Part shown: positions 2-44,163 of the stretch, in pieces | Numbering within the stretch: position 1 is the first letter of the stretch | Layout: each line of letters starts with the position of its first letter | Assembly: GCF_000169175.1 (NCBI RefSeq) | Contig: NZ_AAWS01000066.1 | Coordinates: 1 to 46,992 of the forward strand | Direction of reading: 5' to 3' | From: Microscilla marina ATCC 23134 | GTDB lineage: Bacteria; Bacteroidota; Bacteroidia; Cytophagales; Microscillaceae | Length of the DNA: 46,992 nucleotides | Made by a program: the position numbers and the translations under genes | Notes under the pieces: generated by a model | Seen by the model: the letters and a program-made list of their open reading frames with translations, nothing else | What the model was told of the DNA's origin: nothing | The model's database searches: none

Positions 2-2458
2 CTATATCCCTAAAATGCTTTTTACCTTGGTAGTCCCCACAAAATTTAACGTCAAGGTAGAGCCTACCTTGTAGGCATTCTCTATCACATCTATTACATA
101 ACGCCCCCCATCTGGTTTGGCACTTACTACACCCACAGGAATACTTCTAGTTTCTTTTGCTACTCCCTCAAGTTTCCCCTTTTCCTTCTCCAACCCTTTA
201 TCGTGCACCACGTGTTGATTTTCGCGGTCTACCTTGGGGTCATCTTCTTTGCCCTTTTTTATGGTAGGGTCCAGGGTGCGGGCACAAGCCCCCTCTAGCT
301 TCGCCAGGTAGTCGTCCATCGTGCCTTTAGTGGTTTTTTGGGCAGCTTGGCTATACTCCCGGGCGGTTTTGCTTATGTCCAGCTCATCGCCATACTTTTG
401 GGCAATACGTACCAACGCCTGGGCGTGTTGCAGGGTAAAGTCGGCAAAAAAAGCGTCGTGGGTTCCCCGTAAAATGGCCTCGGCAAGCAGGGTTTGCCAC
501 AAGGCTTTGGCCTGAAGGTTAGAAAAAACCACCTTCATTATCTCCTCTCGGTTGCCGTTGCCGTGTTTGTCGTGGGGTTTGGTGGGGCTGGTTTTGCCCT
601 TGCCCACTACCGTGTCGCCCGTTGCCTCCTGGCGGGTGCGGGCAGCGGCTTTGCCCTTGCCTGCCTTGTTTTGGTCGCTGGTGGCAGCCTTGCGCCAGTC
701 GGTGGTGCCGTGCGCACTGTTTTCCTGGTCGCCTTCGGGCAGGTCTTGCGCCAGTAGCAGCAGCATGTCGGTGGCGCTTATGGTGTTTTTGCTGTTAAAG
801 ATGTGGGTGGCACGGTCGGGCTTGATCAAAAAGGCAAGCAACAGCGCCAAGCCGTCTATGGTGTCCATGGCGAGGTTGAGGTGAGCCACCACCCGGGCAA
901 ACTGCACTGCCCTTGCCCCCATCTTTTTGCCGTATTTGGTGCTATACTCTCCCGCTATTTTTTCTACATCGGCCAGGTGCTGTTTTGTTGCTGCCTTGAG
1001 CCTTTTAAGTTCTTTAGCCTGGTTTTTAGCTTTTTTGCTCAGGGCTTTTTGCTGGGCTATGAGCTGTTTTTGCGAGGGTATGTCGGCGTCCAGCCCCAGC
1101 TTTTTGGCCAGCTTGTTTTCTTCGGCGCGCATTTGGGCGTTGAGTTGCTTTAGTTTATTTTGCTCTATGGTGCGGTCTATCGAGGTCAGGTTTACATCTT
1201 GGCGCACGGCTTGCCCAAACTTTTTTTTGGGCACCTCTTTCCATTTTTTACGCGGCGTGTTGGCGAGGTCTTTTCGGCTTTGGCGCGCCAGCTGGTGGTC
1301 TTGGTTGAGTTGGTCTATTTTTTTCTGTTGTGCCTTCAGGTCTTCCATTAGCTGGTGTAGCTTGGGGTCTTTTTTTATTGCCCGGTTGAGCTGGTGGCGT
1401 TGCTTGCCCAGTTTCTTGAGCTTGCGTTGTTTTTCTGGGTGGGTGCTGGCTTGGGCCTCTAGCCCTATTTGTTGGCGTTTGCTGGTTTCCAGCTTTTTGA
1501 GGGCTTCTTTTTGGGCTTTTACCTTGCCATACTCCATAAAACCTATAGTAGGCGATATTTTGAGCGCCCCTACTATGTCTATAGTAATGCCCGATGCCAA
1601 TGCCTGCTTTACCAAAGGCAAATGCGATATAAACCCAAATATTTCGTTTTGGGGGCTGTTTTTGTGGAGCCTGCCCGTTACTTTCAACGAGATATTGAAG
1701 GGGTCAAAATCAAAGCCCATGCCCATTACGCCCTTGCCTACACGGGCAGTGTGGGGGTTTACTCCGTTGGCGAGGTTGCTTTGAGGGTTGGTTTTCAGTT
1801 TTTTGGCATCTTTCATCGAGGTTTTAAACTCCATAAAGCCTGCGCTCAACTTGAGCTTAATCCCGCCCATTACTGCCTCTTGGGTGTTCAGGTCAAACAA
1901 CTTGCTAGAGTACTTGCCCAGGGTTTTTTGCCCCTTGGGGCTGTGCACTTCTTTGATGGTGGTGCCCCCACCCGAACGCGACGCTTTTACATACTTGTCG
2001 AGCGTCGTACCCGTGGGTATGGGTTGGGTGGTGCGCTTAGGAATCATGATAGCCACCTCGCCGCTCAGCTTAAAGGGCAGCTTTTTGCCACCACGGGTGG
2101 TGTCGGTTTCCAAAAACACCCATTTATACAAAGTAATGTCTCCGGTAAGACCCACGGGGAGGGTTGGCTCTTTGCGTTGTTCCTCCGTCATTCGCCGGGT
2201 ATAGTCGCTGGTATGCGGCAACTGTGGGCGGCTTTGGTAGGGCGTTTGTTTTGCCTTGTGGTTTTTGTAATTGCTGCGGTGGGGTAGGTGCTTGCTCTCT
2301 ATGGGGGGCAAGTCGCCGCCTACCGTGGGTATGCCATGGGTAGTACCCTGGCTTTGCCCGGTTTTTTTCTCAGGCGCTTTTGTTTTTTTCTGTACAGGTT
2401 GCGGTGCCTGCGTTTGATCCTGGGCTTGGTTGTCATCTGCTTGCGTTTTTTTGTGCAT
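2..2458 (-). CDS. Large Lys-rich coiled-coil protein, function unknown
   Basis: 818 residues, complete: the stop is the second base of the window. I do not recognise the family. The first ~90 residues are a Gln/Lys/Pro/His-rich, low-complexity, probably disordered tail with no signal peptide. Residues ~100-310 contain short hydrophobic alternating stretches that may form beta structure. Residues ~315-520 are a very Lys/Gln-rich predicted coiled coil. A hydrophobic helical patch follows near 535-560 (AMDTIDGLALLLAFLIKP), then a Gly/Lys-rich linker and a helical C-terminal part ending in a short beta-like segment. The hydrophilic start with a QPVQKK-type stretch is reminiscent of cargo proteins of extracellular contractile injection systems in this phylum, but no injection-system gene is present, so that is only a guess. 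Two small genes on the same strand lie upstream. Confidence 0.75.
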   Translation of the reverse strand: MHKKTQADDNQAQDQTQAPQPVQKKTKAPEKKTGQSQGTTHGIPTVGGDLPPIESKHLPHRSNYKNHKAKQTPYQSRPQLPHTSDYTRRMTEEQRKEPTLPVGLTGDITLYKWVFLETDTTRGGKKLPFKLSGEVAIMIPKRTTQPIPTGTTLDKYVKASRSGGGTTIKEVHSPKGQKTLGKYSSKLFDLNTQEAVMGGIKLKLSAGFMEFKTSMKDAKKLKTNPQSNLANGVNPHTARVGKGVMGMGFDFDPFNISLKVTGRLHKNSPQNEIFGFISHLPLVKQALASGITIDIVGALKISPTIGFMEYGKVKAQKEALKKLETSKRQQIGLEAQASTHPEKQRKLKKLGKQRHQLNRAIKKDPKLHQLMEDLKAQQKKIDQLNQDHQLARQSRKDLANTPRKKWKEVPKKKFGQAVRQDVNLTSIDRTIEQNKLKQLNAQMRAEENKLAKKLGLDADIPSQKQLIAQQKALSKKAKNQAKELKRLKAATKQHLADVEKIAGEYSTKYGKKMGARAVQFARVVAHLNLAMDTIDGLALLLAFLIKPDRATHIFNSKNTISATDMLLLLAQDLPEGDQENSAHGTTDWRKAATSDQNKAGKGKAAARTRQEATGDTVVGKGKTSPTKPHDKHGNGNREEIMKVVFSNLQAKALWQTLLAEAILRGTHDAFFADFTLQHAQALVRIAQKYGDELDISKTAREYSQAAQKTTKGTMDDYLAKLEGACARTLDPTIKKGKEDDPKVDRENQHVVHDKGLEKEKGKLEGVAKETRSIPVGVVSAKPDGGRYVIDVIENAYKVGSTLTLNFVGTTKVKSILGI

Positions 2459-4325: not shown

Positions 4326-5021
4326 ATGGCAATCAAATATGCCCTGTACGACAATCAAATGACCAGTGATCCCGACGACCACATGGCACAAGTACAGCAT
4401 GACCAAACCCTTACTCTAGACAATATCATAGAAACCATGATAGGGCGAGGCTCTACCATTACCAAAGCCGAGGCACTATCGGTATTAGAGGAGTTTTTTG
4501 ATGCCATTACCGAAGCCATCAAAAACGGACAGGCCATCAATACCGAATTGATTAATATATCGGTGAGCCTCAAGGGGGTGTTTACCGACAGCAACGACCG
4601 CTACGACAGCAACCGCCACCACGCCAAAATAAACGTACAAGCAGGTACCCGTCTCAAAAAGGTTTTGAGTGAGTTGTCGTTTACCAAAACCGAAGCCAGC
4701 AAACCTGTGCCTACTTTGCTCAATTTTAAAGACGTGGCAAGCGACTCTAGCAATGACACCCTCACGGCGGGTGGGGTAGGGCAACTAAACGGCAGCCGCC
4801 TAAAAATAGACCCTGCCGACAACGACCAGGGTGTTTTTTTTATTGCCAGCAATGGCACCGAAACCAAATCGCCTACTACTATTCGTAACAAACCCTCTGA
4901 GCTTATTTTTATGGTGCCGGCCGGGCTTGCCAGTGGCAACTACAAGCTAGAGGTAAGGGCTAAGCTTGGCGGCAAGGGCATAAGAAAGGGGCAATTGCTC
5001 GACGAGCTGGTGGTAAACTAA
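4326..5021 (+). CDS. HU-like DNA-binding protein with DUF4469 domain
   Basis: 231 residues. Residues ~1-125 match the atypical HU/IHF-like domain of Bacteroidota: a helical pair around TLDNIIETMIGRG and TKAEALSVLEEFFDAITEAI, then a beta region ending in the RLKKVL segment. Residues ~128-229 form the immunoglobulin-like DUF4469 domain, including PSELIFMVPAGLASGNYKLE. Such proteins are often annotated as DNA-binding domain-containing proteins and are thought to be nucleoid-associated; the exact role is unknown. It is a single-gene unit followed by two terminator-like hairpins. The start is the ATG after an A-rich leader with no Shine-Dalgarno, usual for this phylum. Confidence 0.85.
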   Translation: MAIKYALYDNQMTSDPDDHMAQVQHDQTLTLDNIIETMIGRGSTITKAEALSVLEEFFDAITEAIKNGQAINTELINISVSLKGVFTDSNDRYDSNRHHAKINVQAGTRLKKVLSELSFTKTEASKPVPTLLNFKDVASDSSNDTLTAGGVGQLNGSRLKIDPADNDQGVFFIASNGTETKSPTTIRNKPSELIFMVPAGLASGNYKLEVRAKLGGKGIRKGQLLDELVVN

Positions 5022-5400: not shown

Positions 5401-6981
5401 CTACATCAACTCTTGAAAACTATGTACCTTTAAGCGTTCTTTGAGCCGTTGTGCCCTCATTTTTGTGGCACCTTCGCTTATCTTTAGCTCCTCAGCTATG
5501 CGTTTGTAGGCACAGCCCCGCACCACTAGCACCAACAGCTTTACTTCGTCGGGCTCTAGGGGGCGTTGCAGGCGGTGGGCTGCCTCTTGTAGCAGGTGGG
5601 TTTCCTGGGGTTTTATGTCTCCAAGCCCCTCTATAGGGCTTGCCTTCATTGCCTCCACAAAATCGGCTTGGGCTTGTACTTGTTCGGCTTGGGCTTGTAC
5701 TCGTTCGGTTTCGGCTTGCACCTCTTGTATACGGGCTTTTATTGTTTGGGCGCGTGCCTTGTATAGCCACAACCCCCCTATAGCTATAGTGGCTGCTATC
5801 ACCACCCACCACCAAGGAGATATTTGCCGCACTACCCGCACTTGGGTTTTGGGTTGGGTGCGGGCTATCACCAACGAGTCGCGCGCGTGTACCCTTAGCT
5901 GTATTTCTTCGTAAAGCTGTTGGCTGTATTGCAGGCGTTCGGCAAACCATTGTTTGTGGGGGGCAAAACGGGCGCGTTGCTCACTATAAAAACACAAATG
6001 CTTTAAGAGTTGGTAGCCGCTCTGGTTGATCTCGTAGGCAAGCTTACGGGCAAACTTTTGCTGGATGGGGTGGCTTGAGCGTTGGCGCAAATGCTTCAGC
6101 AGGGTATCGCTGCGCCCTATGGCTTGGCGGGCTTCAGGCTCTTGCCGCTCTACAAACAGCAATAGCCCATGGGTGGCTTGTAGCATAATGTGGCTCACGG
6201 GGCTGGTTTGCTTAAGCGCCAGGGCTTGGTTGAGGTGCTGCCGGGCTTGGCGGGCGTTTTGGTTGAGCATATAATACCAACTTAGCCGCACCAAACGAGT
6301 ACATTTTCGGGCGGCATTGGGTTCGGCAAAGCGCTCCAGGGCAAGGCGTTGGTAATGTATTGCTGAATCGTACTGGGTTTGGTTTTCTTTGAGGCGGGCA
6401 AGGTCGTCGTAGATATTTGCTAATTTGGCTTTGTGTTTTCCTTGAGTAAGTTGTATCGCTTTTTTAAAAGTTTCACTGGTATTGCCAAAGTTATCCTGAA
6501 CAGTATAACAGTTTGCTAGTAAGTTAAATGCTTCAATTAAGTTAGTTGTATCTTGTAGTGTTGTAAAGTTCTGCACTGTTTTCTTAGCTATAGATGTGGC
6601 TTTTTCATAGTTGCCTGCATTTTTGTAACAAAAAGCTATGTTTTTGAGCATTACCGCTTTTTGGCTAGGTTGCTTATACAAATCATACGCTTTTTGGTAG
6701 TGTTTGATAGCAAGGGCATAATAGCCTTGATTTAGCGCATAAAAAGCCAATAAGTTATGAGCATTGGCTTGTTCTTCTGGTTTTTGGCTGGCTCTTGTGG
6801 CTTGGCTGGCGTAGTGTATCGCCGAGTCGGGTTGGGCATTGCCCACTTGGTAGGCTTTGGCGTAGAGGCTGTCAAAGGGGCTTTTTGTTTTTTTTGAGGG
6901 GGTGGTTTGGGCGTAGGTAGCTTGGGCAAAGGCAAGGCACAACGCCAGCCCCGCAAGACGTAGGGTAGTGGATAACAACAT
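5401..6981 (-). CDS. TPR-transmembrane-HTH regulator
   Basis: 526 residues. Signal peptide 1-24 (ending ATYAQ); tetratricopeptide-like helical repeats ~35-290 (e.g. ALNQGYYALAIKHYQKAYDLY, split by eye into repeats); one transmembrane segment ~388-408 (WWWVVIAATIAIGGLWLY); a cytoplasmic coiled coil ~412-442 with three VQAQAE-like units; and a LuxR/GerE-like helix-turn-helix at ~474-526 (EPDEVKLLVLVVRGCAYKRI, then AEELKISEGATKMRAQRLKE). This layout is common in Bacteroidota and is thought to couple a periplasmic signal to transcription. It is divergent from the GG-leader peptide gene at 7113, with only 131 bp between them, so it may regulate that gene (inference). The tandem-repeat array directly follows its stop. 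Confidence 0.85.
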   Translation of the reverse strand: MLLSTTLRLAGLALCLAFAQATYAQTTPSKKTKSPFDSLYAKAYQVGNAQPDSAIHYASQATRASQKPEEQANAHNLLAFYALNQGYYALAIKHYQKAYDLYKQPSQKAVMLKNIAFCYKNAGNYEKATSIAKKTVQNFTTLQDTTNLIEAFNLLANCYTVQDNFGNTSETFKKAIQLTQGKHKAKLANIYDDLARLKENQTQYDSAIHYQRLALERFAEPNAARKCTRLVRLSWYYMLNQNARQARQHLNQALALKQTSPVSHIMLQATHGLLLFVERQEPEARQAIGRSDTLLKHLRQRSSHPIQQKFARKLAYEINQSGYQLLKHLCFYSEQRARFAPHKQWFAERLQYSQQLYEEIQLRVHARDSLVIARTQPKTQVRVVRQISPWWWVVIAATIAIGGLWLYKARAQTIKARIQEVQAETERVQAQAEQVQAQADFVEAMKASPIEGLGDIKPQETHLLQEAAHRLQRPLEPDEVKLLVLVVRGCAYKRIAEELKISEGATKMRAQRLKERLKVHSFQELM

Positions 6982-7072: not shown

Positions 7073-7112
7073 CCTAATATTACAACACTTTTTTTTGAGG
7101 ATACAAAAGAAT

Positions 7113-7310
7113 ATGAAAAAGCAGAAAAAAACAAACCAGGGGCTGCAACATTTTCGCAAAGTGGCGCTTAGCCCACTTGCCCAAGCCCAACTCCGCGGAG
7201 GCTGCGGCTGTGGTCCTGACAGCGGAGGAGTAACCCCACCGCCACCACCGCCTGCAGCTATGGCAAGGCAAACAGGGGCAACCACCGTTTTTTGGGCGTG
7301 GGGAGGCTAA
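7113..7310 (+). CDS. GG-leader peptide precursor A (putative RiPP)
   Basis: 65 residues. The leader, MKKQKKTNQGLQHFRK then VALSPLAQAQLRGG, is basic then amphipathic and ends in Gly-Gly at 29-30, the classic cleavage site of peptidase-containing ABC exporters and of many Bacteroidota ribosomal peptide precursors. The putative core starts CGCGPDSGG, has a six-proline run, and ends TTVFWAWGG. The start ATG lies 12 nt after GAGG and a T8 tract; longer upstream in-frame starts are not shared usefully between copies. No maturase or exporter is visible nearby. It could instead be an unmodified secreted peptide. The family call rests on leader style only. Confidence 0.7.
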   Translation: MKKQKKTNQGLQHFRKVALSPLAQAQLRGGCGCGPDSGGVTPPPPPPAAMARQTGATTVFWAWGG

Positions 7311-7339
7311 GCAAGGGAATTTTTTATAGGTTTAAAGGT

Positions 7340-7363
7340 AGGGGCTTGGCAAGCCCCTTTTTT
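7340..7363 (+). terminator. Intrinsic terminator of peptide gene A
   Basis: GGGGCTT (7341-7347), loop GGC, AAGCCCC (7351-7357), then T6. It lies 30 bp after the stop codon. Confidence 0.85.
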
Positions 7364-7482
7364 GTTGGTTACTCCCTATATACCTGGCAATAGAGGCAAG
7401 TTGGCAACTTGTGATTGCACGAAAGTTGAAAAACTTTCTTCTATTCGGAGGCATAAGTTAAAAAAACTTAAGCCAGTGGGTT

Positions 7483-7902
7483 TTATGAACTGACCTTTCG
7501 TAGCACGTATTTTTGTTTTTAAGCCAAAAAATACAGCATAGGACTAAGGTCGCGTCAGCTAGATTCAGCCTTAGTTTGTTGCCGTTAAGAATCTGTGAAA
7601 CGAAGCCGTAAAACCGAGGCTGCAGCTTTGCTGCGCCGAGCTCTGCGTAAGCTAAACAGATCACTGTTTGAGCGAAGCGAGTTTGAGCTGTTTCGGCGTA
7701 GTGTAACAGATTTAGGCAAAACAAACTACAGCTGTGGGGTTTTTGGTTACTTTTTTACCTATAGAAAATCCATGATCCCGAACTTGATTCGGGGAAGTAA
7801 CGGCTCACAGATACTCGAATCATTGTGTTTTATTAGCTTGTTTGAAGACTGGTATAATATTTTGTTAAACAAATTTTTGACCTGCGAAAGGTCAGTTATG
7901 AA
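7483..7902. mobile_element. Possible IR-bounded non-coding insertion
   Basis: The segment between the two peptide copies is bounded by inverted repeats with core ACTGACCTTTCG at left (7489-7500) and its complement CGAAAGGTCAGT at right (7885-7896), inside imperfect ~21-bp ends. It encodes no protein with family signatures. Inside are a dispersed-repeat copy (~7605-7660) and a CCCGAA/TTCGGG hairpin (~7773-7795). It may be a MITE-like element or a patchwork of repeats. Confidence 0.35.
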
Positions 7903-8056
7903 TTTAAAAACTGTTAAATTGGGTCTTTAGGCATAAAACCGAAACACTTTTAAAAATAAAGTGAGTACGCAATCTTCGTATAAAATACTGGTTTACAGTA
8001 TTTAACAAGTGGGCTATTGTAATATACAACACTTTTTTTTGAGGATACAAAAGAAT

Positions 8057-8257
8057 ATGAAAAAGCAGAAAAAAACAAACCAGGGGCTGCAACATTTTCG
8101 CAAAGTGGCGCTTAGCCCACTTGCCCAAGCCCAACTGCGCGGGGGCTGCGGCTGTGGTCCTAATGATGGAGGGTCAACCCCACCGCCACCACCACCGCCT
8201 GCAGCTATGGCAAGGCAAACAGGGGCAACCACCGTTTTTTGGGCGTGGGGAGGTTAA
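8057..8257 (+). CDS. GG-leader peptide precursor B (putative RiPP)
   Basis: 66 residues. The 30-residue leader is identical to precursor A. The core differs at PNDGGS in place of PDSGGV and has seven prolines instead of six; the MARQTGATTVFWAWGG end is unchanged. Cys31 and Cys33 directly follow the Gly-Gly. It has its own terminator. Near-identity at the DNA level points to recent duplication or ongoing gene conversion. The role is unknown; antimicrobial, signalling or toxin peptides are all possible. Confidence 0.7.
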   Translation: MKKQKKTNQGLQHFRKVALSPLAQAQLRGGCGCGPNDGGSTPPPPPPPAAMARQTGATTVFWAWGG

Positions 8258-8286
8258 GCAAGGGAATTTTTTATAGGTTTAAAGGT

Positions 8287-8310
8287 AGGGGCTTGGTAAG
8301 CCCCTTTTTT
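8287..8310 (+). terminator. Intrinsic terminator of peptide gene B
   Basis: GGGGCTT (8288-8294), loop GGT, AAGCCCC (8298-8304), T6. Same hairpin as copy A with one loop change. Confidence 0.85.
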
Positions 8311-8435
8311 GTTGGTTACTCCCTTATACCTGGCAATAGAGGCAAGTTGGCAACTTGTGATTGCACGAAAGTTGAAAAACTTTCTTCTATTCGGAGGCAT
8401 AAGTTAAAAAAACTTAAGCCAGTGGGGGACTATTG

Positions 8436-19425: not shown

Positions 19426-22119
19426 TTACCATCCCCTCCCCCTAAAGTGGGTTTGTACCCATACTATCAGACGCTCGGCAAACTGAAAAGAGGTGTTGCC
19501 ATGCACAAACTCATCTTTTAAAGCGCTGAGTTGACTTTGCTGGATGCCCATTTGATCGAGCAGATCAAAAAAACCCGCCACATTATTGGTATTAATCAAG
19601 TAAAACAAACGCCGGGTGTGGTCTTCTTTATTATCCAAGATACCTTCCAGCATGGATTGAATAGATACCTCTTCTACTGATTTGTCGCATACCCGCTTGC
19701 TTTTTCCTTTTGCCTGAAACTTACGCAGGGTTTGGTAATCGTGTAGGTGCGGCTTGGTTTTGTGTGGGCAGCCCACCGGACACACACAAGGCACTTTTTC
19801 TTGCAAGGGAGGATAATTAAGTTTTTCGTGGATGTGTTCGAGGTGGTTTCGGATCAAAAATAAGAGTTTATCAGCTTTAGGTCCCCACACTTCAATGGCA
19901 ATCGTTTTGCGAATGTCTGTATCATCCCATAATACCTTCGCATAACTTTGTTCGTAGGCAAGTACCACCCCATATTTCCAGAAAAGCTCTTCGTGAATAA
20001 GCCTATGTATACGACAAATAAAGCGACTAAGTACCCCTTTGGGCATAAATTCATAGTGGTATTCAAAGTGTAAATGTCGGGCTTCATCGGCAGTTGGCTG
20101 AAGGTAAATAACCCGAGAGGGCATTTCAATGGGCAACAGTTCAGGAATGATGTACTTGATGTCGTCGTGGAGCTGAAAAATAAGTTCAAACTGTTCCATC
20201 AAATGTAACAGAAACATGTGCTTATCGTCAAAACGCTCTTCTGGCCAGATGTTGTCCAGGTCATGCAGACTAAACCTGCCCTGTACTACATGTTTGCTAT
20301 CGCGCAGCAAATAAGCAGCTTCAGTTGCCCATTGAGGCTTAAGCACTACTGTATTTTTAAGCTTGGCTTCATTGCCAAAATGCAAAATTGCGCCAATGTC
20401 GTGCAGTTGGTTACTCAAAAAGCCTGCATCGGTTCGGTTTACCCGGTGTTCCGCACAAACCTTAAGATATTCGCGTTTAGAGATACAGTCGACGCTGTAT
20501 TGCTCTAACGTTTTGCGCACAGCAAATCGGTGTTTGTTCCATACCTCACGGATATGGGGCAACGCCAACAGTTCATCTATCACAGTCTCACGCAAAATAT
20601 CAATGCCTTGCCCGGTTTTACACGAAGTTTTTAAAAAGCCTACAATGTTGTGAAAGCGCTTTTTCCAGTTTTTTTGGTCTATTTCACTTTCATATACATC
20701 TACTTTGTTTTGCACCACTATAATAGGCGCATTGTCTGAAAGTAGCGATACAATGCGCAACCAATAGTTAAACGCTTCGGTTTGCTCACCTTTGCGGGTT
20801 TCCCACACAAACACATACACCGAATTTTTAGTTAAAAAAAACTGGTGGGTACCATAGTTGATCTCCTGCCCGGCAAAGTCCCAAATATTGGCAGTAAAGT
20901 CAATCACCTCGTCGTCTAACTCACAATTAGGCGGTTGCCACTGCTTGATACAAATGCCTTGAGTGGTAGTCCTGTGTTGCTCAAAAGAATAGGCTGGATT
21001 ACTGATTGCCTCGGCCAATTCGGTTTTACCCACATCGCCCACCCCTACAAATATGAGTTTAGCTTCGTGCAGAGGGCGGCGGTCTGCCTTGTTTTCTATA
21101 GATTGTAGGTAGTTACGTAGTTTAGGCAATACATTTCCTTCTTGTTTGGCAAACCATCGGGCAATAAAGTCTGCTTTGTGTTTGCCACCAATGATACTGG
21201 AGGGAATATTTTCAATCGGATTATTGTGTAAGTATAAAATGTGCAGGCCAATCAGCGGCTTTAAAAAATCGTGTGGAAACTCTCTGATCTTATTGAAGTT
21301 TAAATCAAGGAGGGTGAGGTTTTGGAGTTGATGAAACAATGGTAAATAAACAATGTTGTTATGATCTAAATATAAACGGTTTAGTAAAGCTAAGTTTTCT
21401 AAAGGGGTTATATCTACAATGGTGTTGTTACTTAGGTTCAGCTGCCTTATGTTTACAAGGTTTTCCAAAGGATGAATACCTGTAATAAGATTGTCACTTA
21501 GATCAATCGCTTTTAAGTTAGCCAGTTGAGCCAAAGGTGCCAGGTCAGTTATTTTATTCGTATTAAGGGCTAGTTTTTCCAGTTTACCTAAGTGCTGCAA
21601 AGGAGTTAAATCATTGATAGCACAATCTACCGCAGTAAATTTTCTCAACTGCTTGAGGGTAGCCAAAGGGGTGATATTTACAACATTGTTGAAACTAACA
21701 TCTAGCACTTGCAAGTTTACTAAGTGACCCAAAGGGGCTAAATTTGTGATATTATTATTGGCCAGATACAACTGCTGCAGGGAGGTCAAATTTTGCAAAG
21801 GAGATAAATCTTGTATGCCCCATTTTTCTACTATACATCCTGCAACCAATCGCTTCAGGTTTTTGGGTAATAACAAAGGAAGTTGCCTTAAGTTATTTGG
21901 GTAGTTGTCATTATCTGTATTTTGGGTAAACTCAAATGTGCTGATTTGAGAGACATCTTCAAACCAGGAGTTTCCCAAAATCAATGTCTCCAAATGGTTA
22001 CACTCTTCAAGACGTTCAAGTAGGGATTCAGTGCCATCCAGTCCACAATTGCCAAGGTCAAGGATAGAGTTTTTGGTGTGCAAATTTTCTTCGATCAGTC
22101 TTTTCGCCAGGTTGTTCAT
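19426..22119 (-). CDS. LRR-Roc-COR (Roco) GTPase
   Basis: 897 residues. Leucine-rich repeats of the 22-residue type cover ~40-305 (LQQLYLANNNITNLAPLGHL). The Roc GTPase domain covers ~352-520: P-loop GVGDVGKT 359-366, switch-II DFAGQE 414-419, NKVD 471-474. The COR dimerisation domain covers ~525-760. After COR come CVCPVGCPHKTKPHLH (778-793) and Cys811, a likely zinc-binding patch, then a helical ~60-residue tail (~835-893) resembling death-fold-like effector-associated domains. Bacterial Rocos cycle between GTP-bound monomer and dimer; targets are unknown. It has no clear operon partner. Confidence 0.92.
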   Translation of the reverse strand: MNNLAKRLIEENLHTKNSILDLGNCGLDGTESLLERLEECNHLETLILGNSWFEDVSQISTFEFTQNTDNDNYPNNLRQLPLLLPKNLKRLVAGCIVEKWGIQDLSPLQNLTSLQQLYLANNNITNLAPLGHLVNLQVLDVSFNNVVNITPLATLKQLRKFTAVDCAINDLTPLQHLGKLEKLALNTNKITDLAPLAQLANLKAIDLSDNLITGIHPLENLVNIRQLNLSNNTIVDITPLENLALLNRLYLDHNNIVYLPLFHQLQNLTLLDLNFNKIREFPHDFLKPLIGLHILYLHNNPIENIPSSIIGGKHKADFIARWFAKQEGNVLPKLRNYLQSIENKADRRPLHEAKLIFVGVGDVGKTELAEAISNPAYSFEQHRTTTQGICIKQWQPPNCELDDEVIDFTANIWDFAGQEINYGTHQFFLTKNSVYVFVWETRKGEQTEAFNYWLRIVSLLSDNAPIIVVQNKVDVYESEIDQKNWKKRFHNIVGFLKTSCKTGQGIDILRETVIDELLALPHIREVWNKHRFAVRKTLEQYSVDCISKREYLKVCAEHRVNRTDAGFLSNQLHDIGAILHFGNEAKLKNTVVLKPQWATEAAYLLRDSKHVVQGRFSLHDLDNIWPEERFDDKHMFLLHLMEQFELIFQLHDDIKYIIPELLPIEMPSRVIYLQPTADEARHLHFEYHYEFMPKGVLSRFICRIHRLIHEELFWKYGVVLAYEQSYAKVLWDDTDIRKTIAIEVWGPKADKLLFLIRNHLEHIHEKLNYPPLQEKVPCVCPVGCPHKTKPHLHDYQTLRKFQAKGKSKRVCDKSVEEVSIQSMLEGILDNKEDHTRRLFYLINTNNVAGFFDLLDQMGIQQSQLSALKDEFVHGNTSFQFAERLIVWVQTHFRGRGW

Positions 22120-42339: not shown

Positions 42340-43125
42340 TTACCTCGGTCTTTCCAACCATTCCAGAAAAGGAGTGACCTTTAAACGACTGACAATGGCC
42401 TTGTCAGGAATAGCAAAGTGGAGGTTTACCACCATTTTTCGGTTAAAGTAAGGTTCAATATCTTTGACAGCCACCCGGTTTACAATCATCTGGCGGTTGA
42501 TCCTAAAAAACAGCTGACGATCAATGACGGCCTCAATCTCGTCAAGGCGTTTAAAAATGGCTTGCTTTTCTCCATCAAACCCATACACATGAACAGTGTC
42601 ATTGTCTAAATGAAAAAAAGCAATCTTTGTTACCTCTACCGGAACCATTTTATCGCGGTAACGCACTAAAAAAGACCTTTGCAAGGTGGGTTGGTCAGCA
42701 GGGTAGGGGGCTTGTGCCAATATTTGCTGGGCTACCTGTGGTATATTTGGGTGGTTTTTGCCCAATGCCTGCTGTAGGTTTTGAACCTTGGCAAGCGATT
42801 GGTAAATGTCTTGCTCTTTGAAAGGCTTCAGAATATAGTCAATGCCATTGTTTTTGAGCGCTTTCATGACAAACTCATCGTAAGCTGTGCAAAAAATCAC
42901 AGGTATGGTTACCTCTACCTGTTCAAACACCACAAAACTTTGTCCGTCGGCAAGCTGAATGTCCAAAAACATAATATCAATTTGTGTCTGGTGTTTTTTT
43001 AAGTAATTTACTGTAGCTTCTACGCTGTCGAGCACCTGCACCACCAGGTAGGTTGCTTTGGCTTCTATAAACTCAGTAAGCAATTCAGCAGTTCGTCGTT
43101 CATCTTCTACTACCAATACATTCAT
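42340..43125 (-). CDS. LytTR-family response regulator
   Basis: 261 residues. Receiver domain ~1-120 with acidic pocket (VEDE), phospho-acceptor Asp55 (MFLDIQLADG), Thr/Ser switch and Lys in YILKPFKEQD. LytTR DNA-binding domain ~150-255 (FFRINRQMIVNRVAVKDIEP, then LKVTPFLEWLE). Follows the kinase gene by 3 bp on the same strand, so it is its cognate partner. Such regulators bind direct repeats in target promoters; targets are unknown. Confidence 0.93.
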   Translation of the reverse strand: MNVLVVEDERRTAELLTEFIEAKATYLVVQVLDSVEATVNYLKKHQTQIDIMFLDIQLADGQSFVVFEQVEVTIPVIFCTAYDEFVMKALKNNGIDYILKPFKEQDIYQSLAKVQNLQQALGKNHPNIPQVAQQILAQAPYPADQPTLQRSFLVRYRDKMVPVEVTKIAFFHLDNDTVHVYGFDGEKQAIFKRLDEIEAVIDRQLFFRINRQMIVNRVAVKDIEPYFNRKMVVNLHFAIPDKAIVSRLKVTPFLEWLERPR

Positions 43126-43128
43126 TTT

Positions 43129-44163
43129 TTAATATAAATTAAGGGTGACCGCATATTCGTGTTCGTTTTGGCTAACCGTGAGTCCATTGTCGAGCCCCAT
43201 CAACTGATAACGGTTGCGGAGGTTGTCAAGTCCCACCCCCAGCGAATCTTCTTGTGGGGCTTTGGGTTGGTAATTGTTAGCCACAGTTACACTACTGGGC
43301 TTTTGTTGATAAATTTTGATAGTCAATGGACGGCTCGTCGATACAATATTATGCTTGATGCAGTTTTCTACCAATAGTTGCAAGGCGTATGCTGGCAAAC
43401 TGTAAGCCAAGGCATCAGGGGCAAGTTGAATGTCTACATGCAGGGCGTCTTCGTGCCTTACCTTGAGCAAATAAATATATGCATTCAAAAAATCCACCTC
43501 CTCTTTAAGCGTCACGGTGTTGGTAGCACGTGTTTGCAATATTTGGCGGTACACATCGGACAAGTTCATTACAAAATCTTCTGAATTGGCGTTGTTTGAC
43601 CTGATCATGGTGCGTAAAGTACTGAGCGAATTAAACAGAAAATGAGGGTTTACCTGTTTGCGAAGCTGGTCTAGTTCGGCTTTGTATTTTTCAGATTTTA
43701 GGGCAAGGTTTTCGGCTTTGAGCGTAGCCACCGACTTAGTGGTTTTGAGGGTGTGTTGAATAGCGGTAAACAACCACGAAGCCAGTAAAAATTTAAGCCC
43801 GGCTGCCCAACCAAGTGGAGTAGAAAGAAATTGAAAATTGACTGAAAAAAAACGGGAAAGAATGAACAGGTAAAAGGCGGTAAGCCCCAGGTTGCCCAGC
43901 AAAAAAGTGAACAAAAACTTACCTCCTTTAGTAGGTGCTATTTGGTTGTTGAAGTACCATAAAATAAGCAAAAACAAACTAATGCATACCCAACGAGGCA
44001 AAAACTCTATGATATCCAGTGATTTTTGCCGGGCAACATCGCCTATAAAGTTGAGTAATGGCAGCAAAAAAGCAATCACAAAAGGCAAGGCTCTTTCTAT
44101 AGAACTGGTTTGGGTATTTTTGTCCAACATCTGTGTTTTATTTTTGGCTAATTGGGTGGTCAT
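43129..44163 (-). CDS. LytS/YehU-type sensor histidine kinase
   Basis: 344 residues. Four predicted membrane helices (~27-43, 56-71, 82-103, 117-135), a short coiled coil, then the His_kinase motif QVNPHFLFNSL (His174), and an ATPase domain with LLVENCIKHNI (N box) and GVGLDNLRNRYQ (G box). No separate periplasmic sensor domain, so the membrane part is the sensor. It phosphorylates the LytTR regulator encoded immediately downstream. Confidence 0.93.
   Translation of the reverse strand: MTTQLAKNKTQMLDKNTQTSSIERALPFVIAFLLPLLNFIGDVARQKSLDIIEFLPRWVCISLFLLILWYFNNQIAPTKGGKFLFTFLLGNLGLTAFYLFILSRFFSVNFQFLSTPLGWAAGLKFLLASWLFTAIQHTLKTTKSVATLKAENLALKSEKYKAELDQLRKQVNPHFLFNSLSTLRTMIRSNNANSEDFVMNLSDVYRQILQTRATNTVTLKEEVDFLNAYIYLLKVRHEDALHVDIQLAPDALAYSLPAYALQLLVENCIKHNIVSTSRPLTIKIYQQKPSSVTVANNYQPKAPQEDSLGVGLDNLRNRYQLMGLDNGLTVSQNEHEYAVTLNLY

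What the first reader, a model, noticed from the sequence alone, without database searches (positions are those of the whole stretch)
7081..8426. Duplicated double-glycine-leader peptide genes: candidate undescribed RiPP or bacteriocin-like system
Two genes for 65- and 66-residue peptides share a basic leader ending LRGG, a CGCG start to the putative core, a proline run and a VFWAWGG end. Each has its own intrinsic terminator and sits in a ~400-bp direct repeat. Leader plus Gly-Gly plus Cys/Gly core is the style of Bacteroidota ribosomal peptide precursors, but the Pro6-7 and FWAWGG end fit no class I know. No maturase or ABC-peptidase exporter is in the window, so it would rely on enzymes elsewhere or be unmodified.
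Basis: partly seen in the sequence, partly recalled or inferred. Interest (0 to 1): 0.85.

Follow-up and report, generated by a model that had tools for sequence, protein, structure and literature searches.

The report
Secreted peptide paired with membrane regulator
A marine bacterium carries repeated genes for small, probably exported peptides, nearly all next to a gene for a membrane protein that looks built to sense a peptide and switch genes, which suggests an undescribed kind of bacterial peptide signalling, though nothing has been tested in the laboratory.

Summary
Two genes (7113-7310, 8057-8257, +) encode 65- and 66-aa peptides with a basic Gly-Gly leader, a CGCG core start, a Pro6-7 run and a VFWAWGG end, each with a conserved terminator hairpin, in a tandem repeat of about 400 bp. 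They belong to a paralogous family (leader-GG-Cys pair-PPPPP-variable tail) found full-length only in two Microscilla genomes among those sampled.

The divergent neighbour (5401-6981, -) is a predicted signal peptide-TPR-TM-HTH protein. Six of 6 own-genome loci with intact peptides, and 6 of 6 such readable loci in a second Microscilla, sit head-to-head with a TPR-TM gene. A promoter box recurs at 7 of 13 loci; its exact form occurs only at peptide promoters.

No maturase or exporter was found in the window ORFs scanned. C39-ABC exporters lie elsewhere; LanC loci have their own precursors. A RiPP reading lacks support.

Best explanation: the peptide is cleaved and exported at Gly-Gly, bound by the periplasmic TPR superhelix, and the HTH controls the divergent cassette: functionally RRNPP-like, but not a member. 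Ligand binding is inferred, not shown; the HTH match is weak in most paralogues.

The parts
5401..6981 (-). Divergent regulator, 526 aa: predicted signal peptide (~1-24), TPR superhelix (~35-375), transmembrane helix (~383-405), helix/coiled coil, C-terminal GerE/sigma70-r4-like HTH (~458-525)
   Evidence: Pfam TPR_12 2e-13, GerE 22.4 bits, just under its 23.5 cut-off; AF2 model mean pLDDT 76, high for ~35-300 and ~460-525, low (38-58) for ~370-450; hydropathy; Foldseek TPR hits
7113..7310 (+). Peptide gene 1 (65 aa): leader of 30 aa ending LRGG, core of 35 aa
8057..8257 (+). Peptide gene 2 (66 aa): identical leader, core of 36 aa
7051..7064 (+). Promoter box AGGCAGTATTTTTG, including a TAnnTTTG-type -7 element (consensus recalled); absent upstream of copy 2
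   Evidence: AGGCAGTATTTTTG occurs 3 times in this genome and 3 times in the relative, all at peptide promoters
7081..7480 (+). Direct-repeat unit 1
8025..8426 (+). Direct-repeat unit 2
7340..7358 (+). Intrinsic terminator-like hairpin of copy 1, followed by T's
8287..8305 (+). Intrinsic terminator-like hairpin of copy 2, followed by T's
7488..7898 (.). Dispersed repeat of about 410 bp with imperfect 31-bp terminal inverted repeats (MITE-like), between the peptide copies
   Evidence: 10 other near-full copies at 69-90% identity (a lower bound: 40 of 362 candidates were scored)
7891..8009 (.). 119-bp dispersed repeat lying where the promoter of copy 2 would be
   Evidence: 22 other matches at 92-95% identity (lower bound)
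4326..5021 (+). HU-like DNA-binding/DUF4469 gene; a gene with the same start and end sequence lies at the matching place beside the regulator at G001 C103
   Evidence: Pfam run on the window gene only

Best explanation
A two-gene peptide-sensing cassette. The peptide is made as a precursor, cleaved after Gly-Gly and exported by a C39-ABC transporter encoded elsewhere (C6 and C21 are candidates). The core, with a Cys pair at its N-terminus, a poly-Pro stiffener and a variable tail, is bound by the periplasmic TPR superhelix of the divergently encoded membrane regulator. Binding is passed through the single TM helix to the cytoplasmic HTH, which controls the shared intergenic region, so the peptide autoregulates its cassette and perhaps neighbouring genes. 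Shown by tools: the ORFs, the pairing, domain architecture and model, the promoter box, mostly purifying selection, C39-ABC proteins in the genome. Inferred: export, cleavage, periplasmic topology, ligand binding, DNA target.
For: Pairing: 6 of 6 own-genome loci with an intact peptide (C66, C10, C7, C16, C14, C17) and 6 of 6 readable such loci in G001 (C103, C276, C317, C23, C117, C123) are head-to-head with a TPR-TM gene; a seventh, G001 C1, is too, but its peptide has no clear full-leader start. Thirty of the 46 own-genome TPR matches were fetched: the four with a family peptide are the four best hits, and my pattern scan saw none beside the other 26 (24 distinct genes). Co-distribution: in order-wide samples the full-length peptides and the close regulators (E <= 1e-25) occur only in the two Microscilla genomes (2 of 291; 2 of 148). 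The exact promoter box occurs 6 times in two genomes, 6 of 6 at peptide promoters. The TPR part models well to about residue 300 and matches peptide-binding TPR folds (LGN, KLC1, RapH at rank 35) among generic TPR hits. One TM segment in 14 of 14 regulators and an N-terminal hydrophobic segment in 11 of 14. Modular divergence of TPR and HTH segments among otherwise similar regulators. C39-ABC proteins in both species.
Against: The pairing would also follow if the regulator merely controls a secreted effector peptide in response to something else. Peptide tails do not track the regulator's variable TPR segments: C103, C276 and C317 share a tail although their TPR segments differ, and C10/C103 share a TPR segment (~234-354) but not a tail. 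Tandem multi-copy peptides are unusual for a signal (recalled). Of 7 own-genome regulators scanned, only C10's HTH passes a Pfam cut-off; the window's is just under, C7 and C15 weaker, C16, C17 and C14 have no HTH match, and C14's orthologue has none either. C15 is such a regulator with no peptide found beside it. The box is found at 7 of 13 loci only (exact at 5, variants at C7 and C23), and 10 of the 20 sites of the looser pattern are elsewhere. No exporter was seen beside a peptide locus. The loci are paralogous, so they are not independent events.
Confidence: 0.45

Rival explanations
1. Secreted effector or bacteriocin-like peptide under one-component control: the TPR-TM-HTH protein senses another cue (envelope or competitor) and switches on the divergent peptide, whose own role is antimicrobial or structural. 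The peptide is an output, not the ligand.
For: Tandem copies with a near-constant leader and diversified cores at C66, C10, C103, C117; tails not tracking TPR segments; a paralogue (C14) has a weak, below-cut-off match to a 'bacteriocin-like' leader model.
Against: I saw no recurring immunity-like gene at the loci (by eye); no core matched a bacteriocin family in NCBIfam or Pfam (window peptides).
Confidence: 0.35
2. RiPP precursor modified in trans by a maturase encoded elsewhere (radical-SAM/SPASM, ATP-grasp or LanB/C).
For: Two paralogues pass the TIGR04149 RiPP leader cut-off; the genome has four LanC loci.
Against: Each of the six LanC loci seen in the two genomes has its own Gly-Gly precursor just upstream, with a shared leader pattern (L.[LIVM]K) that 0 of 21 family leaders have; this pattern was shaped on those six leaders. 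Several cores have only one or two Ser/Thr. Radical-SAM and ATP-grasp enzymes were not searched genome-wide.
Confidence: 0.13
3. Non-coding or selfish repeat: the ORFs are by-products of a dispersed repeat.
For: The spacer is made of dispersed repeats.
Against: The repeats found cover only the spacer; leader changes are mostly synonymous; the ORF family is conserved in two species with a partner gene and, at 7 of 13 loci, a promoter box.
Confidence: 0.03

Closest known systems
RRNPP (Rap/Rgg/NprR/PlcR/PrgX) peptide quorum-sensing pairs of Firmicutes (PMC10075063: abstract start and passages seen)
   Same: Adjacent genes for a small propeptide and a TPR receptor; RapH is among the Foldseek hits (rank 35)
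   Different: Here the receptor has a predicted signal peptide and TM with a C-terminal HTH, so sensing would be periplasmic; the peptide has a Gly-Gly leader; the host is a Gram-negative Bacteroidota
TIGR04149 / Gly-Gly Bacteroidota RiPP precursors
   Same: Basic Gly-Gly leader; paralogues at C7 and C14 pass the curated cut-off
   Different: Window copies score below the cut-off; no maturase found in the window; Cys-pair/PPPPP core
Class I lanthipeptides of Bacteroidota (pinensin type; PMC7268733, passages seen)
   Same: Gly-Gly leader, C39 processing expected
   Different: No LanB/LanC found beside them; the published LxLxKx5L leader motif is absent, though it is also absent from this genome's LanC-locus leaders
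TPR genes noted in Bacteroidales RiPP clusters BGC2 and BGC9 (PMC10352776, section 3.2 read)
   Same: TPR gene near a precursor; the paper recalls that TPR domains act in regulation after pheromone binding in other bacteria
   Different: Those clusters carry radical-SAM or LanM maturases and exporters; here the pair stands alone and recurs as a divergon
[quoted passage not shown] 2004; seen only as a reference entry in PMC8939145)
   Same: Gly-Gly peptides of Gram-negatives as candidate signals, sought with their transporters
   Different: I have not seen its text and cannot say whether it covered this genus or any TPR partner

Membership tests
TIGR04149 Gly-Gly RiPP precursors | Leader scores above the curated 25-bit cut-off | tested here: not met
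   Window peptides 12.3 and 16.7 bits; paralogues C7 49.5 and C14 26.6 bits meet it
TIGR04149 Gly-Gly RiPP precursors | Encoded next to a SPASM-family maturase (as described in PMC8939145, passage) | tested here: not met
   No such domain in 29 window ORFs scanned; other loci judged by eye; genome-wide search not done
Class I lanthipeptide | LxLxKx5L leader motif (PMC7268733, passage) | tested here: inconclusive
   Literal motif: 0 of 21 family leaders, but also 0 of 6 LanC-locus leaders. A looser pattern shaped on the latter: 0 of 21 against 6 of 6
Class I lanthipeptide | Linked LanB/LanC | tested here: not met
   LanC matches are at C9, C84, C16 (90 kb) and C4, each with its own precursor, none at a family peptide locus
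RRNPP | TPR receptor gene adjacent to the propeptide gene | tested here: met
   Window 5401-6981 beside 7113, and 12 further loci including one with an unclear peptide start
RRNPP | Cytoplasmic receptor without TM, N-terminal HTH if any (recalled) | tested here: not met
   Signal peptide-TPR-TM-C-terminal HTH by prediction
RRNPP | Peptide binding controls receptor output | not testable with these tools
   Needs binding and transcription assays
Double-glycine peptides exported by C39-ABC transporters | Gly-Gly site after a basic leader, and a C39-ABC in the genome | tested here: met
   GG invariant in 18 of 18 aligned; C39 domain over its cut-off in ABC proteins at C6 and C21. C21 passes the NHLM exporter cut-off; C6 passes none of the named exporter models shown. 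G001 has three C39 proteins
Double-glycine peptides exported by C39-ABC transporters | Cleavage and export by that transporter | not testable with these tools
   Needs peptidomics and an exporter mutant

The most novel reading that the evidence does not exclude
A membrane-anchored, periplasm-facing analogue of RRNPP: Bacteroidota Gly-Gly peptides act as autoinducers read directly by a co-encoded one-component TPR-TM-HTH receptor, with no kinase and no re-import, multiplied into several loci whose receptors shuffle TPR and DNA-binding modules.
Probability: 0.38. Interest if true: 0.85.

Novelty: new variant of a known kind. Interest (0 to 1): 0.6.

Why it matters
TPR-TM-HTH regulators look to be common in Bacteroidota and I know of no established ligand (recalled). 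A genetically linked candidate ligand makes that directly testable. If confirmed it would be a peptide-signalling architecture without a histidine kinase or peptide re-import in a Gram-negative phylum. My eight literature searches listed no paper that I recognised as describing it; only listings were seen for most, and one search returned nothing.

Tried and rejected
Lanthipeptide reading: not primary, because the LanC loci have their own precursors; the published leader motif turned out not to discriminate. RNA element: Rfam gave 0 matches at gathering thresholds. tRNA-linked element: 0. Sigma-70 promoter scan: 1 site against 2.1 expected, uninformative. Genus-external relatives: the peptide model hit 25 further order genomes weakly at E <= 0.05 and 3 class genomes besides the own one at E <= 0.001, one of them among those 25. 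The loci fetched for the order hits show mostly generic Gly-Gly leaders with different cores, some look like chance matches, and I saw none in the divergent arrangement; neighbours there were judged by eye from ORF ends, not by profile, so a TPR gene nearby cannot be excluded. Regulon targets beyond the peptides: the looser box AGGCARTDTTTTTG has 20 sites in the two genomes (1 for the reversed control), of which 10 are peptide promoters; the other 10 gave no convincing target. Co-variation of peptide tail with receptor TPR module: not seen. Scan of genome contigs with the peptide: 0 relatives confirmed. Pfam on the peptides: nothing credible. Alignment A1 held 18 of the 22 family peptides eventually known; left out were the fourth C10 copy, whose leader frame is interrupted near its start, one C103 copy, and the C123 and G001 C1 copies found later.

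Full report
OBSERVATION. Both ORFs are present as described. P0001 (7113-7310) and P0002 (8057-8257) share an identical 30-residue leader ending LRGG, a CGCG core start, six or seven prolines and a VFWAWGG end. They lie in a tandem repeat of about 400 bp and each is followed by a conserved terminator-like hairpin. The window is one whole contig, C66, of a 9.77-Mb genome. The nearest relative, G001, is of the same genus, and its contigs are titled uncultured Microscilla sp., so I take the window to be Microscilla.

REAL GENES. Between the two copies the leader has 2 synonymous and 0 nonsynonymous changes, and the core about 6 and 5. Of nine peptide pairs compared, leader dN/dS was 0-0.18 in six, 0.53 in one (3 nonsynonymous, 1 synonymous) and could not be estimated in two (saturation). 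Core dN/dS was 0.16-0.63 in eight and 1.0 in one pair of 16 codons. All rest on few sites. The leader is constrained and the core more relaxed, with tails most variable.

FAMILY. Homologues occur at C10 (4 copies), C7, C16, C14 and C17 of the same genome and at C103 (3), C276, C317, C23, C117 (2), C74 (2), C123 and C1 of G001: 22 peptides with the two of the window. In 18 aligned members the invariant columns are the Gly-Gly and two prolines; one Cys and two further prolines are nearly invariant. One C10 copy has its leader frame interrupted near the start, and the G001 C1 copy has no clear start for a full leader. Two further own-genome hits lie outside the pattern: an orphan leader at C1 with no Cys or Pro run, and a degenerate copy with stops at C20; no regulator was seen beside either. 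Profile searches found full-length members only in the two Microscilla genomes among 291 genomes of the order. Of 395 genomes of the class, the only full-length matches were in the window's own genome.

THE PARTNER. The gene head-to-head with copy 1 (5401-6981) has TPR repeats (TPR_12, E 2e-13) and a C-terminal GerE-like HTH just under its cut-off (22.4 of 23.5 bits). The AlphaFold model, built on 5 sequences (mean pLDDT 76, pTM 0.57), gives an N-terminal helix, a TPR superhelix at about 35-375 (best to about 300), a poorly predicted helix through the membrane segment and a well-predicted HTH region at about 458-525. Foldseek matches are generic TPR folds, many of them solved with bound peptides, with RapH at rank 35. 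Simple hydropathy gives a single TM in 14 of 14 regulators, marginal in the window one, and an N-terminal hydrophobic segment in 11 of 14. Periplasmic placement of the TPR domain is inferred from this. Across 7 own-genome regulators only C10's HTH passes a Pfam cut-off, and C16, C17 and C14 have no HTH match.

PAIRING. Six of 6 own-genome loci with an intact peptide are divergent from such a TPR gene, as are 6 of 6 in G001 whose flank is readable, plus C1 with its unclear start; C74 begins 114 bases from its contig end and cannot be judged. Of 46 TPR matches in the own genome 30 were fetched; the four with a family peptide are the four best hits. One regulator, C15, the apparent orthologue of the C117 gene, has no peptide that I could find. 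Regulators close to the window's (E <= 1e-25) were found only in the two Microscilla genomes among 148 of the order. The loci are paralogous, so these counts are not independent trials.

PROMOTER. Upstream of copy 1, two C10 copies, three C103 copies, C276 and C317 there is a conserved block, and C7/C23 carry a related box: 7 of 13 loci; C16, C14, C17, C117, C123 and G001 C1 do not show it. AGGCAGTATTTTTG, which includes a Bacteroidota-type TAnnTTTG -7 element (recalled consensus), occurs 3 times in each genome, always at peptide promoters. The looser pattern has 20 sites in the two genomes, of which 10 are peptide promoters, against 1 for the reversed control. Copy 2 lacks the box: a 119-bp dispersed repeat lies in its place, so copy 2 may be silent or differently driven.

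EXPORT AND MODIFICATION. No C39 transporter or maturase domain was found in the 29 window ORFs scanned. The genome has C39-ABC proteins at C21 (over the NHLM exporter cut-off, beside an HlyD-like and an NHLP-like gene by eye) and C6 (standalone, below all named exporter cut-offs shown), and a C39-VKOR-like protein at C65; G001 also has three C39 proteins. The four LanC loci of this genome and the two of G001 each have a Gly-Gly precursor just upstream. The published lanthipeptide leader motif is absent from 21 of 21 family leaders but also from 6 of 6 of those precursors, so it does not decide; a pattern shaped on the latter separates them, 6 of 6 against 0 of 21. Radical-SAM and ATP-grasp enzymes were not searched genome-wide.

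MECHANISM. The most economical reading is a peptide-sensing cassette: Gly-Gly export, periplasmic TPR binding, HTH control of the divergent promoter. The principal rival is that the peptide is only the regulated output. In favour of signalling: the recurrent pairing, a peptide-binding type of fold, no recurring immunity-like gene seen, and modular divergence of TPR and HTH segments among regulators. Against: tails do not track TPR modules, peptides come in tandem copies, several regulators lack a recognisable HTH, the box is at about half the loci, and exporters are unlinked.

NOVELTY. RRNPP pairs are the functional parallel but membership fails (TM, signal peptide, C-terminal HTH). The leader family is known (TIGR04149-like). 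TPR genes in Bacteroidales RiPP clusters were noted, with a remark on pheromone binding elsewhere, in PMC10352776 (section 3.2 read). Gram-negative Gly-Gly peptide screens exist (Dirix 2004, seen only as a reference). My eight literature searches listed nothing that I recognised as this divergon; most subscription papers are not in that library.

Corrected on review: number of window ORFs scanned (29), nearly invariant prolines (two), the G001 C1 peptide start, the share of loci with the box, the HTH cut-offs, and the leader-motif test.

Noticed in passing
window 7488-7898 and 7891-8009: Two kinds of dispersed repeat fill the spacer between the peptide copies: a MITE-like element of about 410 bp with imperfect 31-bp terminal inverted repeats, and a 119-bp repeat with at least 22 other matches at 92-95% identity.
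   Followed up: partly
window 2-2458 (-); L012 14274-15284; L071 292-1491; L072 4816-6258: Genes near four of these cassettes share an N-terminal stretch (M..K.Q...Q.Q....PVQKK.KA) with different downstream regions (HELKH metallopeptidase-like and LysM-like by eye; Pfam found nothing in the two scanned): a polymorphic secreted-protein look, possibly a regulated neighbour.
   Followed up: partly
window 19426-22119 (-): ROCO-type protein (LRR-Roc-COR-A/B), bacterial relative of LRRK2-like GTPases (recalled).
   Followed up: no
L119 983-1971, L126 1260-1912: Clusters of 3-4 short Gly-Gly ORFs (MKNFKK..-KGG type, mostly Cys-containing cores) unlike the Pro-rich family.
   Followed up: no
L129, L131, L133, L134: Four compact LanC loci, each with its own Gly-Gly precursor just upstream and a signal-peptide-like gene of about 430 aa just downstream (by eye).
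   Followed up: no
window 42340-44163 (-): Histidine kinase/LytTR response-regulator pair on the same contig; not linked to the peptides, but a conceivable alternative receptor.
   Followed up: no
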